64,000 nt of DNA from Cupriavidus neocaledonicus (GTDB lineage Bacteria; Pseudomonadota; Gammaproteobacteria; Burkholderiales; Burkholderiaceae): NCBI RefSeq assembly GCF_000372525.1, contig NZ_AQUR01000094.1, positions 62,001-126,000 of the forward strand. Reading direction: 5' to 3'. The notes under the pieces are model-generated. The model was not told where the DNA came from and searched no databases. It saw only the letters and a program-made list of their open reading frames with translations. The translations under genes were made by a program, and so were the position numbers. Positions 48,115 through 53,841 of the stretch are shown here, piece after piece (position 1 is the first letter of the stretch; each line of letters begins with the position of its first letter).

Positions 48115-49545
48115 TCAGAAAGTGATCGGCAGGCGCACATTGACCTGCAGGTCGGGGGTGTCGCGCGTCAGCCCCGCGCCCACCGAAAGGTTCAGCGTAT
48201 AGCGGTTGTTGAAGCGGTACGAATACCCCACCAGCAAGGTGCCCTGCGTGATGCGCACCGAGCCCGGCACGGTCATGCCGTTCTGCTTGGTCGGCCAGAT
48301 GATGGCCTGGTCGTAGCCGATACTGAACGACGCCTTCTCGTTGAGCGACAGCCCCATGCCGAAGCTGAACTCGAAAATGTCTCCCGGGGCGATCTTGCCC
48401 AGGTTTTCCTTCTCGCCGTTCAGCACGGTGCGGCTCACGTTGTCGCGGGAAAAGTTGTGCAGGTAGCTGAAGGTGCCGAAGAACACCGCCGGATCGGTCG
48501 GCAGCAGCCACGTAATGCCGGGCTGGATCGCATGGAAGCCAGTGCCGGTAGGCAGCCCCAGCGGCAGGCCAGTGCCGGTGGCATTGCCCACGCAGCGCGT
48601 CACGCAATCGGTCACAACTTCGAACGGGTCCGTGCCGGTGTTGGACTTGTAGCGCAGCCAGCCGACGAAATACGGAATGCGCTCATTGCCGTAGTTGAGC
48701 TGGTAGCGCACCGTGGCCTCGACATCGCCCAGGCCCTTGCCGCTGGCATTGAACACGTTGTCGACGGCGGTGCCGGTGAACACCTCGCGGCTGATGGTCG
48801 AGCCCGAGGTCTGCACGTACGGCACCTTGGCCTCGATCTCGAGCCGCTTGGTGACGCCGTAGCGCAGCGCGATCGATTCGATATAGGTCGAGGTCTTGAC
48901 CTCGCGCACATCGATCAGCCCGATCAGGATGGCCGGAATGATCGAGTAGCCGACCAGCGCGACGCGGTTGTTCGATGAGTAGCCATACTGGAAGCCCGGC
49001 TCCACCACGAGCTTGCCCTCGGCGGTAAGCACCCCGGGCTGGTCGATCAGCGGTGCCACCTCTGGCGGGCGCCGGTCAGTCTCGGGTGGGCGCCCCACGG
49101 GCTCTTCCATGGCCACCGTCTGCGGGCTGGCCGACTCGCCCGGCTGCGCCCCGGGCTGCGGCGCCTGCGCCATGACCTGCTGCGGGCTGCTGCCCAGGCC
49201 CGGCGCGCCCTGCGTGGCGCTGGCTGCGGCTGCCGCGGCGGCAGCGTTGGTGGCATTGTCGGCCGGCATCACGCCGGGCCCGGAGCGCTGGCCGCCGCGC
49301 TTGGTGGCCAGCACCTCGGTGCCGATCACGCTGCGCAGTTCGCGGATCACTGCCTCCTGCTCGGCCAGCGCCCGCTTCATGGCATCGAGCTGGCTGGCCT
49401 GCTCGGCGAGTTCCCTCTGCAGTGATTCCAGTCCGGCCGCGGGTGGCCCCGCCTCCGGCGGCGTCTGGGCCTGCGCCAGTCCGCCGAGCAACAGCAACGT
49501 CGAGCATCCCGCATTGCGGATGCCCTGCATCGAGCGCTTCTTCAT
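48115..49545 (-). CDS. FapF-like outer-membrane export channel (coiled coil plus beta-barrel)
   Basis: 476 residues. A signal peptide (cleavage near AQA-Q, residue 26) is followed by a coiled coil at ~39-75 (heptads in LESLQRELAEQASQLDAMKRALAEQ), a ~85-residue Ala/Pro/Gln-rich flexible linker, and a ~300-residue C-terminal barrel of amphipathic strands ending in NVRLPITF. The barrel resembles the Phenol_MetA_deg/transporter superfamily. FapF of Pseudomonas has the same order: trimeric coiled-coil plug, linker, then a 12-strand pore that secretes amyloid subunits. As the last gene of the locus, it probably exports the fibre proteins upstream. Homology to FapF is by architecture only. GGGGAGGA precedes the start. 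Confidence 0.78.
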   Translation of the reverse strand: MKKRSMQGIRNAGCSTLLLLGGLAQAQTPPEAGPPAAGLESLQRELAEQASQLDAMKRALAEQEAVIRELRSVIGTEVLATKRGGQRSGPGVMPADNATNAAAAAAAASATQGAPGLGSSPQQVMAQAPQPGAQPGESASPQTVAMEEPVGRPPETDRRPPEVAPLIDQPGVLTAEGKLVVEPGFQYGYSSNNRVALVGYSIIPAILIGLIDVREVKTSTYIESIALRYGVTKRLEIEAKVPYVQTSGSTISREVFTGTAVDNVFNASGKGLGDVEATVRYQLNYGNERIPYFVGWLRYKSNTGTDPFEVVTDCVTRCVGNATGTGLPLGLPTGTGFHAIQPGITWLLPTDPAVFFGTFSYLHNFSRDNVSRTVLNGEKENLGKIAPGDIFEFSFGMGLSLNEKASFSIGYDQAIIWPTKQNGMTVPGSVRITQGTLLVGYSYRFNNRYTLNLSVGAGLTRDTPDLQVNVRLPITF

Positions 49546-49620
49546 CGCGTCTTCCTCCCCCGGACGGCAGGCTGTTGTGCAGGAGCCTGCGACCTGTACT
49601 GCCTGCTACCTCGCTAACGG

Positions 49621-50535
49621 CTATCTCATGCTTGCGGCCCGCAGCAGCGCATTGTTCAGCGCCGTGTTGGCCAGTTGCGACCGGAAGGCCTGCAGCGTAT
49701 TGACGCTTGCGTCGATTGTCATCAGGCTCCGGATGCTCTGGTTGTTCAGCGTGTTCTGGATCACGGTCACCGGCGTTGCCGCCAGCGCGCCCACCGCGGC
49801 GGCATTGCCCGGGCCGTTCTGGATCACGTTCTGCAAGCCGTTGGTGACGACCTGGCCCGTGGCCGTAGTCACGACCGTGGCCGGCAGGCCCGCCGCCCCG
49901 GCCGCAGCTGCCGCGGCCGTACCGGATGCCGCTGCGCCAGCGCCGCCAGAGACGCCGCCATGGGCAGATGCCGCAGCCGCGCCGCCGCCGCCCGCACCAC
50001 CCGAAGCCGCCGCGCCGGCGCCATTGGCGCCCATCGCCGCGGCGGCGTCGGCCGTGACCGGACGGCCCGCCAGCGCGTTGGCGACCGTGGCGTTGGTGTT
50101 GGCCACAATGGCGGGTCCCAGTGCCGCGGCCAGCCGTGCGGCCTGCGCAGCAGTGATGCGGCTGACGTCAGGGATGTTAATGCTGGTGGCGACCACCAGA
50201 TCGCCGTTGATGTACACCGCGCGTTCGATACCGAACGAAACCTGCAGCCCGGGCATCTCGAAGCCGCCGCGCATGTCGTCGAGCTTGTCATGCGCCACCG
50301 GTTTCCAGCCGGCCATGCTGCCGCGCGCGGCGGCCAGCGGGTGCGAGTCGCCGCGCTCGCGCGCGGCCATGGCTGCCGGCGACGGCGGCGCCGCGGTATC
50401 GGTTGCGCCTGCCGGCGGCATCATGCCGGCCTGTGCCGTGCCGGCGTACGCCAGGCCGGCGCCCAGCACCATCGCCGCGGCCGCCGAGGCGGCGCTGCGT
50501 GGCACGGCCGGGGCCGGCAAGGAAATCTGCAACAT
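49621..50535 (-). CDS. Secreted accessory protein with LDDMRGG motif
   Basis: 304 residues: signal peptide (hydrophobic ~20-32, AQA cleavage near 36), an Ala/Pro-rich region, then KLDDMRGG at 84-91, a short beta segment (GLQVSFGIERAVYINGDLVVATSI), an Ala/Gly-rich low-complexity centre (~160-225) and an Asn/Gln-rich C-terminus with VIQN and NNQSIRS-type motifs. The LDD-x-RGG motif is shared with the small protein two genes upstream and resembles double-glycine sites cut by C39 proteases, one of which is encoded next door. GAGGAA precedes this start; a longer frame overlapping the protease gene is less likely. Composition suggests a minor fibre component or nucleator. Confidence 0.75.
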   Translation of the reverse strand: MLQISLPAPAVPRSAASAAAAMVLGAGLAYAGTAQAGMMPPAGATDTAAPPSPAAMAARERGDSHPLAAARGSMAGWKPVAHDKLDDMRGGFEMPGLQVSFGIERAVYINGDLVVATSINIPDVSRITAAQAARLAAALGPAIVANTNATVANALAGRPVTADAAAAMGANGAGAAASGGAGGGGAAAASAHGGVSGGAGAAASGTAAAAAAGAAGLPATVVTTATGQVVTNGLQNVIQNGPGNAAAVGALAATPVTVIQNTLNNQSIRSLMTIDASVNTLQAFRSQLANTALNNALLRAASMR

Positions 50536-50545
50536 GATGCGTTCC

Positions 50546-51247
50546 TCAAAAATCTCCGGCGCCATGGCGGGGCATGACCGTGAAGAACAGGTTGTCCCGG
50601 TTGACGCCCATCCAGTAAGGACCGCTGGGCGCGACGCGCCAGTCCGCGGCGACGTTGAAGCGCGCGCGCTCGGTGCGGTTGTGGATCACGAACAGCAGCT
50701 GGCTGTCCCAGATGCGCTCGAACTGTTCGCGCGACATGGCGCGCGTGCCGCGCGCCGGATCGCCGACCAGCACGCGGTTGCCCTTCACCCCCTTGACCAC
50801 CACGAAATGGTGGTAGCCGTTCTCGACGATCAGCACGATCGCCGGCACCTGCGTTTCTTCCAGCTTCGACAGCGGCAGCTCGAAGCCATCCGCCTCATAG
50901 CCCAGTGCCGCCAGGAAGCGCTTCATGTCCAGCAGCGAGAACCCTTCGGCGCGGATCTTCTGCTGATCGCCGTTGAGGTACATGTTCTGGAACACGGTGG
51001 CCTCGTTGATCGGATGGCCGTACTGGTACGTCAGCAGCGTGGCCACCGCGGCGGAGCCGCAGCTGAAGTCGAACTGCTGGCGGATGGTGGACTTGAAGCG
51101 CGCCTCGCGGATGCTGGTGACCCTGACGCTGTAGGGTTCACCGACCGGGCCGTATATCGGGACGTCGGCGGCATGCGCGCCGGGCACATGCGCCGGGGCC
51201 AGCCACCACGGCACGCACGCCAGCAGGATTCGCAGCGGCTTCATCAT
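50546..51247 (-). CDS. C39-family cysteine protease (FapD-like)
   Basis: 233 residues with a signal peptide (MKPLRILLACVPWWLAPAHVPGAHA) and a peptidase C39 domain: catalytic Cys63 in FDFSCGSAAVATLLTYQYG, His147 in NGYHHFVVVKGV and Asp163 in VGDPARGTR. It is a stand-alone periplasmic protease rather than an ABC-fused one, as FapD is in Fap operons. It starts by ATGA overlap with the stop of the small LDDVRGG gene (ATG at 51247, or the next codon). Likely substrates are the two RGG-motif proteins, which carry double-glycine-like sites. The C-terminal ~50 residues after FVIHN are family-atypical. Confidence 0.85.
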   Translation of the reverse strand: MMKPLRILLACVPWWLAPAHVPGAHAADVPIYGPVGEPYSVRVTSIREARFKSTIRQQFDFSCGSAAVATLLTYQYGHPINEATVFQNMYLNGDQQKIRAEGFSLLDMKRFLAALGYEADGFELPLSKLEETQVPAIVLIVENGYHHFVVVKGVKGNRVLVGDPARGTRAMSREQFERIWDSQLLFVIHNRTERARFNVAADWRVAPSGPYWMGVNRDNLFFTVMPRHGAGDF

Positions 51248-51642
51248 TTGAACTGGACGTTGACGATGGTGGCGTTCTGGATCAGCACGTTCGATCCCGA
51301 GTTCTGGATCGCGGTCGGGATCCCCGCCGCATTCGAGAACGCGCCCTCGGTGATGTGGTTGGCGCCGGACAAGGTATTGACCGCGGCGTTGTCGGCGACG
51401 GTGCCGTGCAGGCGCATGTCGTTGACGGTGACTTCCGCACCGCCGCGGACATCGTCCAGCCGCGACACGGGCACGGCCTTGGCCGCGCCGGCGAACAGCG
51501 CGGCCGGCGTCGATGCCAGTGCGGTGCCGGCTGCCGCCGCCGCGGTGGCCGCCAGCCCTGGCGGCTCCGCGTGGACCGGCAATGCTGGCCAGGCGAGTAA
51601 TGCCGCGGCACAGGCGCCGACGGCGAAGCGGACCGGTTGCAT
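51244..51642 (-). CDS. Small secreted protein with LDDVRGG motif
   Basis: 132 residues. Signal peptide (MQPVRFAVGACAAALLAWPALPVHA-E), then an Ala-rich propeptide-like stretch, RLDDVRGG at 61-68 and a 64-residue Asn/Gln-rich beta tail with AIQNSGSNVLIQNATIVNV. The tail shows IQN repeats like those in the larger accessory protein and in the C-terminus of the big fibre protein. The design (leader, GG site, small Asn/Gln-rich body) resembles a precursor processed by the C39 protease that overlaps its stop. A GGGGGG-type site precedes the start. No family name can be given. Confidence 0.78.
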   Translation of the reverse strand: MQPVRFAVGACAAALLAWPALPVHAEPPGLAATAAAAAGTALASTPAALFAGAAKAVPVSRLDDVRGGAEVTVNDMRLHGTVADNAAVNTLSGANHITEGAFSNAAGIPTAIQNSGSNVLIQNATIVNVQFK

Positions 51643-51820
51643 GGTGTTCCCCCCTGCCGATGCGCCGACTCTCTGCCCCCGGCTGCATGGCAACTTGGCT
51701 TGCGTAGGCATGACAGGGCCCGGGCGCCCGCACACAGGATGCGGGCGCCGGTCCTGCCGGCATGACTGCGAAATCGCCGGCCGGCCGGGGCAAGCCCGGG
51801 ATCCGGCCGCGTTGCGCGTC

Positions 51821-53422
51821 TTACCTGCCGCCCACGTTGAGGTTGGCCTGCACGTTCACGCTTTGCTGCACCAGCGAGGCCACGCCGCTGTTCTGGCTGG
51901 CCATCATGATGCCCGCCGCCGTCTGACCCACGCTGGTCATGGTGTTGGACATGTTGAAGGTGCCTGCGTCGACCAGGTTGTAGCCACCGTTGCCGCCGCT
52001 ACCGCCGGCGCCGCCGTTGCCCACGCCGCCCACGCCGCCGGTACCGCCGGTGGCCGCGCCGCCGCTGCCGCCATTGCCGCCGTTGCCGCCGTCGCCGCCG
52101 TCACCGGCGGTGGCGCTGCCGTTCGAGGCCATCGCCGTGGCCGCGCCCGAAGTCGCCGCCGCGCCCGCGCCGCCGGCACCGCCGGTGCTGCTTTGCGCGC
52201 CGCCGGCACCGCCGGTCGCCGTGCCGTTGCCCGCCGTCGCGGTCGCGCCCGCGCCGCTCGAGCCGCCCGCGCCGCCCGTGCCGCTGCCGGCGCCGCCGGT
52301 CGCGACCGCGCCGGAGCTGCCGGCACCGCCCGCGCCGCCGGTGGCACCCGCGCCGCCGCCCGTGCCCGTGCCCGCGCCCGCCGTGTTGGTGCCGGCCGCG
52401 CCGGACCCGCCACCCGCAGCGCCCGCACCGCCGGCGTCGGCGCCGCGGCCGTTGGCATCGCCGCCGCTGCCGCCCGCGCCGCCTGCCGAACCGGCCAGGC
52501 CGCCGAGGGCACCGCTGGCGCCCAGGCCGCCGCCGCCGATCGCGCCGGCACCGCCGCCACGGCCACCCGCGCCAAGCGAGGCGCTCAGCGCACCGCCGCC
52601 CTTGCCGTAGGCATCGCCGCCACTGCCGCCCTGGCTGCCGGCGGCGCTGAGTGCGCTGCCGCCCTTGCCATAGGCGCTGCCGCCATCGCCGCCCCAGCCG
52701 ATCGCGGCGCCACCATCACCACCGTTGCCGCCCGCGGCCCGGCCCGTGGTGGCATCGCCGGCGCGCGCACCGCCGTTATAGGCATAGGCCTTGGCGCCCA
52801 CCGCACCGACCGCGCCGGCAGCACCGTTGCCGCCCACGCCGCCAGCGCCAGTACCGCCGTTGCCGCCGGTGCCGCCCTTGCCGCCGAAGCCGGTGCCGCC
52901 GTTGGCGTTACCGAAGTTCTTGGCCACGTTGCCGATGTTGGCGACCGTATTGCCGGTGACCTGCCCGCTGAGCTTGCTGACGGCGATCGCCTTGCTGGTA
53001 TTGAAGGAATTGGCGATGCTCGACGAGGCATTGCCCGCGTTGGCGGCGGCATTGCCGAGCCCGCCCTGGTCCAGCGTCAGGCGGGTGCGGTTGTCGGAGT
53101 TGGTCTTGCTCTTGTTGTTGGAGTTGGTGCGGTTGTTGGAATCATTGGTCGACTTGTCGACCGCAACCGTCGCGGTGCGGTTGTTGGAGTTGGTCTGCGA
53201 CTTGTCGACGTCGATGCTGGTGGTGCGGGTGCTGGTGCTGTGATCGGAGTTGTCCTGGTTGGAGGTCGAATTCTCGTTGGCCAGGGACCCGGCACCTCTT
53301 TGGGTTGAATTGGCGGTGGCTGACTGATGGTTCCAGCCGTCCGTGTTGTTATTGGTCGGGTTACCCCACGCCGAACCAGCAAAGGCGAGGGCAATCGCCG
53401 ACGCCAGCATTGTCTTGTTCAT
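51821..53422 (-). CDS. Gly/Ala-rich secreted fibre-like protein (PGRS-like repeats)
   Basis: 533 residues in four parts: signal peptide (MNKTMLASAIALAFAGSAWG); residues ~22-115, Asn/Ser/Thr/Asp-rich with repeated DKSxTNSNNRT-like units; ~115-180, a hydrophobic, Asn-containing segment; ~180-480, several dozen GG-x / GGAGG units such as GGKGGTGGNGGTG, almost only Gly, Ala, Ser, Thr and Asn; and a ~50-residue C-terminus (AGTFNMSNTMTSVGQTAAG, then QNSGVASLVQQSVNVQANL). The Gly-rich core resembles mycobacterial PE-PGRS or polyglycine-II sheets. First gene of the locus, it is probably the main structural subunit. A GGGAG site precedes the ATG. Confidence 0.85.
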   Translation of the reverse strand: MNKTMLASAIALAFAGSAWGNPTNNNTDGWNHQSATANSTQRGAGSLANENSTSNQDNSDHSTSTRTTSIDVDKSQTNSNNRTATVAVDKSTNDSNNRTNSNNKSKTNSDNRTRLTLDQGGLGNAAANAGNASSSIANSFNTSKAIAVSKLSGQVTGNTVANIGNVAKNFGNANGGTGFGGKGGTGGNGGTGAGGVGGNGAAGAVGAVGAKAYAYNGGARAGDATTGRAAGGNGGDGGAAIGWGGDGGSAYGKGGSALSAAGSQGGSGGDAYGKGGGALSASLGAGGRGGGAGAIGGGGLGASGALGGLAGSAGGAGGSGGDANGRGADAGGAGAAGGGSGAAGTNTAGAGTGTGGGAGATGGAGGAGSSGAVATGGAGSGTGGAGGSSGAGATATAGNGTATGGAGGAQSSTGGAGGAGAAATSGAATAMASNGSATAGDGGDGGNGGNGGSGGAATGGTGGVGGVGNGGAGGSGGNGGYNLVDAGTFNMSNTMTSVGQTAAGIMMASQNSGVASLVQQSVNVQANLNVGGR

Positions 53423-53841
53423 ACGATGCTCCCAGGAGAATTTCACAGTCACAGCGGCTCAGCTCCTGGCCGGCACGCATCGAAGCGCGCGGCCGGAGGT
53501 TGCGGTCAGGCTTGCTGCCAAACCAGCCCTGCCCTGCGCATAATCGGTGCCAGCGTCGTCACCCGGGGCGGCAAGTCCTTGTATTACAAGGGCCACCTCG
53601 CGTCTCGCCACGGTTTTGGCCGATGTTTTGCCGGATCAACATGGGCCCCCGCGGATGTGCGGCCGGCGACATGTCACATGGCTGTGACAGAGGGGCCGCA
53701 TCGGGTTTTTGAGGACCTCCAGGGGCCGCCAGGAAGGCCTTGCTTTTCAAGGGCTTGCAGCGCCCGCTCGGGATTTGCCCTGATTCTCCGGCCGCGTATC
53801 GGCGGTGAAACACGGCTCCGGGGGTGCCGCCGCCGTCGCCC

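What the first reader, a model, noticed from the sequence alone, without database searches (positions are those of the whole stretch)
48115..53422. Fap-like fibre export locus with a PGRS-like subunit
Five consecutive minus-strand genes form a coherent set: a Gly/Ala-rich secreted repeat protein, a small secreted protein, a C39 protease, a second secreted protein and an outer-membrane barrel with an N-terminal coiled coil and linker. The Fap functional-amyloid operon of Pseudomonas has the same kinds of parts (fibre subunits, FapD protease, accessory FapE, FapF pore). The putative subunit, however, is polyglycine-like rather than the usual Fap repeat protein, and no FapA chaperone is seen. This may be a distinct surface-fibre system of Cupriavidus-type bacteria.
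Basis: partly seen in the sequence, partly recalled or inferred. Interest (0 to 1): 0.88.

Follow-up and report, generated by a model that had tools for sequence, protein, structure and literature searches.

The report
Fap-like export system, swapped fibre subunit
Cupriavidus-type bacteria carry a cousin of the Pseudomonas amyloid-secretion system whose surface protein is glycine-rich instead of amyloid-repeat, and its genes point to a likely cutting signal of the protease that runs such systems.

Summary
The five-gene locus is real and conserved: all five genes were found in 32 of 32 same-genus loci fetched (one copy cut by a contig end, one split). The pore is a FapF homologue and the protease a FapD-related C39. 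It is not Fap itself: scores lie far below the Fap cut-offs, fapA is absent, the other proteins match no Fap model, and the protease falls in a separate clade in which subunit bodies are swapped. The useful find is a double-glycine-type leader, V(-12)…L(-7)..[VM](-4)RGG, behind the Sec signal peptide of both small secreted proteins. A strict form, drawn up after seeing these genes, occurs in 99 of 105 genes just downstream of the C39 gene and 1 of 645 other genes; a slightly wider form in FapE of 72 of 76 Fap loci from named records. FapD's target was called unclear in 2017 and undetermined in 2018. Cleavage is inferred, not shown; a fibre is untested. A sigma-54-type promoter and a palindrome precede the operon.

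The parts
51821..53422 (-). P0001, secreted Gly/Ala-rich (PGRS-like) putative surface subunit, 533 aa; conserved NPTN-like mature start, low-complexity body, conserved tail AGxFxMSNxMTSVGQxAAGIMxxxQNSGxASLVQQSVNVQANL
   Evidence: no Pfam or NCBIfam hit at E up to 1, no PDB hit at E up to 0.001; AF2 unusable, pLDDT 33
51244..51642 (-). P0002, small secreted protein, 132 aa, with post-Sec double-glycine leader; its C-terminus resembles the P0001 tail (HMM-HMM 75%)
   Evidence: the only match in the own genome at E up to 0.01
51439..51474 (-). leader core in P0002: V57(-12) L62(-7) V65(-4) R66 G67 G68(-1)
   Evidence: LxxxRG[GKR] in 32 of 32 genes directly upstream of C39 in the genus and 17 of 20 in other genera; positions
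50546..51247 (-). P0003, Sec-exported stand-alone C39 cysteine protease, 233 aa; Gln (QQFDFSCG), Cys, His (HHF) and Asp (GDPA) present
   Evidence: Pfam PF03412 E 1.6e-24; NCBIfam FapD 142.6 bits (cut-off 330), FilB 133 bits (cut-off 475)
49621..50535 (-). P0004, second secreted protein, 304 aa, in the FapE position, with post-Sec double-glycine leader
   Evidence: detectable likeness to FapE only over the leader and about 15 residues after it
50263..50298 (-). leader core in P0004: V80(-12) L85(-7) M88(-4) R89 G90 G91(-1)
   Evidence: LxxxRG[GKR] in 31 of 32 genus loci and 20 of 20 other-genus loci; positions
48115..49545 (-). P0005, FapF-type outer-membrane barrel with N-terminal helix (coiled coil) and disordered linker, 476 aa
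   Evidence: PDB 5o67 E 6.6e-26 over 162-475; NCBIfam FapF 136.2 bits (cut-off 700); AF2; Foldseek 5o67_B E 4.2e-20, TM 0.82 by target length
49291..49326 (-). weaker leader-like site just after the P0005 helix: I74(-12) L79(-7) K82(-4) R83 G84 G85
   Evidence: LxxxRG[GKR] in 30 of 33 genus barrel ORFs but 4 of 20 and 2 of 14 in the wider sets; -4 is Lys, so it fails the C39 rule
53538..53552 (-). sigma-54-type promoter candidate TGGCAC-N5-ATGC, 130 nt upstream of the P0001 start
   Evidence: best match lies 120-133 nt upstream in 30 of 30 regions, 28 with 1 and 2 with 2 mismatches to TGGCAC-N5-TTGC
53672..53689 (.). palindrome TGTCACA-N4-TGTGACA, 137 nt (start to start) upstream of the promoter candidate; likely activator site
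   Evidence: exact in 27 of 30 upstream regions; the only exact copy in the 6.77-Mb genome, one other with 1 mismatch

Best explanation
A two-step surface-export system, sister to Fap. All five proteins leave the cytoplasm by Sec. In the periplasm the stand-alone C39 protease P0003 binds a double-glycine-type leader that sits behind the Sec signal peptide of P0002 and P0004 (V at -12, L at -7, V/M at -4, RGG at -3 to -1) and cuts after the last glycine. The freed P0002 and P0004, and the bulk subunit P0001, in which I saw no such leader, pass through the FapF-type pore P0005. Outside, P0001 forms a glycine/alanine-rich fibre or matrix; P0002, with a similar tail, acts as a minor subunit or nucleator, and P0004 fills the FapE role. 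A near-identical leader sits in FapE of true Fap operons, so it is the probable recognition site of FapD as well. Shown here: gene content and conservation, homology of pore and protease, the leader and its distribution, the conserved promoter region. Inferred: cleavage, export order, fibre formation, sigma-54 control.
For: Pore and protease homology. Co-occurrence: 32 of 32 loci fetched. Strict leader regex: 99 of 105 genes directly downstream of C39, against 1 of 645 other genes, 0 of 114 barrels, 0 of 115 C39 genes, 0 of 112 upstream genes; the one other hit is the small secreted head protein of a canonical fap operon. A slightly wider regex: FapE in 72 of 76 loci from named records; in the seven of eight Pseudomonas FapEs mapped the leader ends at residue 40-44, close behind the signal peptide. 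The C39 enzyme LahT recognises hydrophobics at -4, -7, -12, and C39 enzymes cut after GG, GA or GS (PMC10885120, passages); P0002 and P0004 fit this. That rule is met by 53 of 65 downstream genes and 10 of 338 remaining genes. FapD acts in the periplasm and needs its Cys; FapE is the one Fap protein with complete N-terminal processing (PMC5557850, section 8). Leaders recur on proteins whose mature parts are not detectably related.
Against: No cleavage is shown anywhere. The strict regex was written after looking at the same genes, so one search is not a blind test. In canonical FapE position -1 is Arg or Lys, not Gly, Ala or Ser, so the classic rule fails there. The LahT rule is met by only 1 of 20 and 4 of 13 upstream genes outside the genus, where -4 is often Y, H, R or Q, and also by 8 of 20 barrels of the other genera. 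A PSSM trained on canonical FapE leaders puts P0004 second (tied) of 643 window ORFs behind a spurious one and P0002 not in the ten listed; in the genus loci the downstream gene ranks first or second in 21 of 32. Of eight with-leader HMM-HMM comparisons three give 77-85% and five give 18% or less. Four of 76 FapE genes lack the motif (L201, L208, L209, L210; not examined). Rouse et al. saw no FapE peptides in the first ~70 residues, further than the predicted cut at ~40; in two Pseudomonas relatives the tryptic pieces after that cut are a 6-mer and a 23-mer ending at residue 69, which may explain it. AF2 gives no fold for P0001. No experiment shows a fibre.
Confidence: 0.6

Rival explanations
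1. It is an ordinary Fap operon whose FapB, FapC and FapE have diverged beyond recognition; P0001 is a FapC with a giant linker and one remaining amyloid repeat at the C-terminus.
For: Same order of protease, FapE-position gene and pore; the tails line up in register with FapB repeats, though without significance; deletion of fapA is a common variant of Fap operons (PMC3792158, text parts 1 and 2 read); P0004 resembles FapE over the leader and about 15 residues after it.
Against: HMM-HMM probability of P0001 and P0002 tails against FapB/FapC repeats 0.5-4.7%; no FapE hit at E up to 1; separate C39 clade; genomes of the same genus carry both this system and a true Fap operon (G023, G001, G056: L066, L068, L073).
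Confidence: 0.2
2. The RGG motif is not the cutting site of the C39 protease but a docking or structural element (for example for the pore or for fibre anchoring); the protease acts elsewhere, such as the linker of the pore.
For: FapE leaders have Arg/Lys at -1; a leader-like RGG also sits after the P0005 helix in 30 of 33 genus barrel ORFs, and 8 of 20 barrels of other genera meet the LahT rule; Rouse et al. suspect FapF linker processing.
Against: Spacing of hydrophobics and glycine matches known C39 leaders; the motif is on both neighbours of the protease and on unrelated proteins; the Pseudomonas FapF starts printed show no clear copy of it.
Confidence: 0.2
3. Not a fibre: P0001 is an exported disordered glycine-rich matrix glue or coat protein, with no ordered polymer.
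For: AF2 pLDDT 33 over P0001; bodies of related subunits are swapped between G/A-rich and N/D/S-rich sequence.
Against: Conserved tail with a Q/N pattern and a small protein with a similar tail suggest assembly; AF2 does poorly on low-complexity fibre proteins (own knowledge).
Confidence: 0.25
4. The barrel is an uptake channel of the COG4313 phenol-degradation type and the neighbours are unrelated.
For: 4rl8 (COG4313) is the next best fold after FapF.
Against: FapF is far better in fold and the only clear PDB sequence match; five-gene conservation in 32 of 32 loci.
Confidence: 0.02

Closest known systems
Fap functional-amyloid system (fapABCDEF) of Pseudomonas
   Same: FapD-type periplasmic C39 protease, FapF-type pore with N-terminal coiled coil, a leader-bearing protein in the FapE position
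   Different: no FapA; subunit Gly/Ala-rich without detectable Fap repeats; extra leader-bearing small protein P0002; protease in a separate clade; scores below the Fap cut-offs
Fil 'putative pilus system' (FilA/DUF6160, FilB C39, FilC barrel; NCBIfam NF050077-NF050079)
   Same: stand-alone C39 next to a FapF-like barrel; FilA-like proteins in L177 carry a leader-like LNDTGLEQATGQ
   Different: P0003 and P0005 score far below the FilB and FilC cut-offs; no FilA-type gene in this operon
Double-glycine bacteriocin/microcin export by C39-containing ABC transporters (PCATs)
   Same: C39 fold and leader layout (-12, -7, -4 hydrophobic, GG)
   Different: protease is a separate Sec-exported protein, substrates come by Sec, outlet is a FapF-type pore, no ABC transporter in the operon
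PE_PGRS proteins of mycobacteria
   Same: glycine/alanine-rich composition only (PGRS likeness recalled, not compared)
   Different: no Pfam or NCBIfam match in P0001

Membership tests
Fap system | FapD (C39_FapD, NF058616) at cut-off | tested here: not met
   142.6 bits, cut-off 330; outside the FapD clade in the C39 tree. The cut-off is strict: 0 of 369 class genomes reached it either
Fap system | FapF pore (NF058560) and fold | tested here: inconclusive
   136.2 bits against cut-off 700, but clear homology and fold match
Fap system | FapB/FapC with Fap repeats | tested here: not met
   no NCBIfam hit for P0001, only a chance NF040680 hit (E 0.7) for P0002; HMM-HMM 0.5-4.7%
Fap system | FapE (NF058559) | tested here: not met
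   P0004 has no hit at E up to 1, while Pseudomonas FapE L212 scores 290 bits, cut-off 250; only the leader region is shared
Fap system | FapA chaperone | tested here: not met
   no such gene in the operon; its deletion is a common variant of Fap too (PMC3792158)
Fap system | amyloid fibres outside the cell | not testable with these tools
   needs staining and EM
Fil pilus system | FilA, FilB and FilC at cut-off | tested here: not met
   FilB 133 of 475 bits, FilC 38.5 of 630 bits, no FilA hit in the five proteins
Double-glycine leader (C39 substrate) | hydrophobic residues at -12, -7, -4 and G[GAS] at -2,-1 | tested here: met
   P0002 and P0004; rule from PMC10885120 (passages)
Double-glycine leader (C39 substrate) | cleavage by the cognate C39 | not testable with these tools
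   no experiment available
PE_PGRS | N-terminal PE domain | tested here: not met
   no Pfam family in P0001 at E up to 1

The most novel reading that the evidence does not exclude
Stand-alone periplasmic C39 proteases (FapD, FilB and the window type) share one post-Sec leader code, LSxxELxxxRG[GRK] and variants, and together with FapF-type pores form a general export chassis onto which unrelated surface polymers (amyloid repeats, PGRS-like, Asn/Asp/Ser-rich) are mounted. Canonical fap operons of this family and some others also carry a further, unnamed leader-bearing small protein at their head (V[TI]LWDE block) that is not counted as a Fap part in the papers I saw.
Probability: 0.5. Interest if true: 0.8.

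Novelty: new variant of a known kind. Interest (0 to 1): 0.66.

Why it matters
What FapD cuts was stated to be unclear in 2017 (PMC5557850, section read) and undetermined in 2018 (PMC6173800, passages); a 2025 review says only that it is thought to process FapE and FapF (PMC12822426, one passage). The window locus shows the motif in its classic GG form on two proteins at once, which makes the same, slightly altered motif in FapE visible and gives an exact residue to test. If right, it moves the double-glycine leader from cytoplasmic ABC exporters to the periplasm, gives a handle for blocking amyloid biofilm export, and shows that this kind of pore can carry polymers with unrelated bodies, of use for surface materials in laboratory strains such as Cupriavidus metallidurans CH34.

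Tried and rejected
Fap repeats in P0001/P0002: in register but not significant, so not claimed. A FapF-wide leader: strong in the genus (30 of 33) but 4 of 20 and 2 of 14 elsewhere, so kept as a side note. A fold for P0001: AF2 mean pLDDT 33, nothing to interpret; no fold search was run on it. PSSM blind scan: not a clean success; the downstream gene ranks first or second in 21 of 32, 20 of 20 and 13 of 13 loci of the three sets. Regulator of the palindrome: the sigma-54 activator-type protein downstream of fapF in L128 has homologues in the own genome (53%, with one stop inside the match, and 51%), but nothing ties them to this site.

Selection effects. The leader regex was drawn from genes seen. 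In some searches the rows of the E, P2 and Head families were picked and cut by the motif itself, and FapB/FapC rows were kept only if they matched a repeat pattern (106 and 75 rows kept), so leader similarity there is partly by construction; the informative part is that mature parts do not match. In one search the 105 downstream genes leave out loci where the next gene is the barrel; L069-L072 and L173 were not in the set. One search kept the best 80 of more than 580 matches, so the named set is not a random sample. In some searches three of 32 loci (L045, L056, L057) were dropped because the start was not found. Genes were called by a home-made caller that misreads the PGRS gene as antisense ORFs in some loci and missed P0002 in L106 and L117. 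One search printed every second row only. Outputs were cut. An earlier count said 17 of 20 loci have the subunit tail; the right figure is 15 of 20 loci (17 ORFs).
Full report
Observation. The five minus-strand genes at 48115-53422 are there. They are close-set, two overlap by four bases, and all five were found in 32 of 32 orthologous loci fetched from the same genus (the P0001 copy of L056 is cut by the contig end and the barrel of L057 is split). The close C39 orthologue is in 55 of 60 genomes of the genus, the own one included, and, at E 4e-80 or better, in 78 of 299 genomes of the family sample, 37 of them in the own genus (my count of the tables). In the plasmid collection the four records with 73-78% identical C39 are all Cupriavidus, among them C. 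metallidurans CH34, whose locus I called and read.

Protease and pore. P0003 is a C39 peptidase (PF03412, E 1.6e-24) with its catalytic residues present. NCBIfam puts FapD first (E 1.1e-41) and FilB second (E 1.3e-38), both far under their cut-offs. P0005 matches the crystallised FapF over its barrel (E 6.6e-26). Its AF2 model (barrel blocks mostly above pLDDT 80) hits FapF first, 5o67_B at E 4.2e-20, with the COG4313 channel 4rl8 at 6.8e-11.

Not a Fap member. P0001 and P0004 have no NCBIfam hit at E up to 1; P0002 has one chance hit at 0.7. HMM-HMM comparison of mature P0004 with mature FapE gives 0.5%, and of the P0001 and P0002 tails with FapB/FapC repeats 0.5-4.7%, while FapB against FapC gives 96%. 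A maximum-likelihood tree of 65 C39 proteins separates a canonical FapD group (24 rows, support 98/94) from a group of 30 rows with the window type and related systems (99/94); the root is by midpoint and long branches are flagged. Three genomes of the genus that carry the window type also carry a second, true Fap operon (L066, L068, L073).

Swapped subunits. In the sister loci the order is subunit(s), small protein, C39, leader-bearing protein, and a barrel that lies on the other strand in 16 of 20 loci of other genera of the family (my count; sequences). Many subunits share an NPTN-like mature start and a tail like FxxxxGIxxxxQNSGxxSLxQQxVxVQANL, but the body is Gly/Ala-rich in most and Asn/Asp/Ser-rich in others. 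The tail pattern was found in 15 of 20 loci of other genera of the family and 5 of 14 further loci of the class. A Croceicoccus plasmid (Alphaproteobacteria) has a similar layout with an N/D/S-rich subunit, a clear leader in the downstream protein (LSEEVLARQRGG) and a weak one in the small protein. The P0001 tail and the P0002 C-terminus may be related (HMM-HMM 75%).

The leader. P0002 reads VPVSRLDDVRGG|AEV and P0004 VAHDKLDDMRGG|FEM; positions -12, -7, -4 and -2/-1 fit the rule for C39 substrates given in PMC10885120 (passages read). Between signal peptide and leader P0004 varies freely in length while the leader stays (every second row shown). Three P0004 orthologues have two or three RGG leaders (L058, L059, L064). 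Over the C39 loci used the strict form occurs in 99 of 105 directly downstream genes, 1 of 645 others, 0 of 114 barrels, 0 of 115 C39 genes and 0 of 112 upstream genes; the form was drawn from these genes. The independent LahT rule is met by 53 of 65 downstream genes in the window-type and sister loci and by 32 of 32 upstream (P0002) genes in the genus, but by only 1 of 20 and 4 of 13 upstream genes elsewhere, by 8 of 67 barrels (all 8 in other genera of the family), 1 of 66 C39 genes and 10 of 338 remaining genes. In the window itself 5 of 58 called genes meet it, P0002 and P0004 among them.

Canonical FapE. In loci from named records the gene after FapD has a slightly wider form of the leader in 72 of 76, mostly with Arg or Lys at -1 (of 80 different canonical leaders, 55 Arg and 25 Lys). 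In seven of the eight Pseudomonas loci I mapped it: it lies a few residues behind the signal peptide (by eye) and stops at residue 40-44. Rouse et al. 2017 (PMC5557850, section 8 read) found FapD periplasmic and Cys-dependent, FapE alone with complete N-terminal processing, and wrote that Fap proteins lack canonical C39 sequences, that GG and GA motifs in FapE suggest it could be processed, and that the target is unclear. A 2018 review (PMC6173800, passages) says the substrate is yet to be determined and reports co-located fapD and fapF homologues in five further phyla. In the listings of my searches and the passages I read, no such FapE leader is described; preprints and most subscription papers are not in the library.

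A further leader-bearing protein. In 18 of 20 canonical loci of the family a small secreted protein upstream of the fapA-like gene reads like LDDQTLARQRGG|… and has a VTLWDE block; relatives with VILWDE occur in L144-L146 and a Halomonas locus, L190. The two examples tested (from L128 and L144) have no NCBIfam or Pfam match. FilA-like proteins in L177 carry LNDTGLEQATGQ or MTDTAMSNATGQ (FilA and DUF6160 matches for one of them). With leaders, P0002 against P0004 gives 77%, this head protein against FapE 85% and P0004 against FapE 81%, over the leader (the last also over about 15 residues after it); without leaders 17%, 0.1% and 0.5%. The other five with-leader pairs gave 0.2-18%. The rows were chosen by the motif, so only the loss of signal without it is informative.

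Control region. A TGGCAC-N5-ATGC element lies 120-133 nt before the start in 30 of 30 regions, and TGTCACA-N4-TGTGACA about 137 nt further up, exact in 27 of 30. The exact palindrome occurs once in the genome. I take this as a sigma-54 promoter with an activator site; it is inferred from pattern and conservation.

Mechanism and confidence. I commit to periplasmic leader cutting by P0003 followed by export through P0005 (0.6). Fibre against amorphous coat is open.

Noticed in passing
L124-L143 (18 of 20 loci), L144-L146, L190: An unnamed small secreted protein with a double-glycine-type leader and a V[TI]LWDE block sits at the head of canonical fap operons, upstream of the fapA-like gene where one was called; two examples tested have no family match.
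   Followed up: partly
L128 8252-9790 (+), L138 8191-9672 (+): A sigma-54 activator-type gene (with GAFTGA) lies just downstream of fapF in these canonical fap loci; homologues at 53% (one stop inside the match) and 51% exist in the window's genome.
   Followed up: partly
L058, L059, L064 (P0004 orthologues): The leader segment, PVxxxxLxxLRGGF-like, is present two or three times before the mature protein.
   Followed up: no
L069, L070, L071: Same-genus loci with a short C39 protein (165-170 aa called) and a 301-aa barrel beside it and no E-like gene; with L072 they form their own branch on the C39 tree.
   Followed up: no
L177 (upstream of its C39 gene): FilA/DUF6160-type proteins next to a C39 begin with a leader-like LNDTGLEQATGQ or MTDTAMSNATGQ.
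   Followed up: partly
window 53577-53591: A second short palindrome, CCTTGTAATACAAGG, lies between the TGTCACA palindrome and the sigma-54-type element and is largely conserved in the genus alignment.
   Followed up: no
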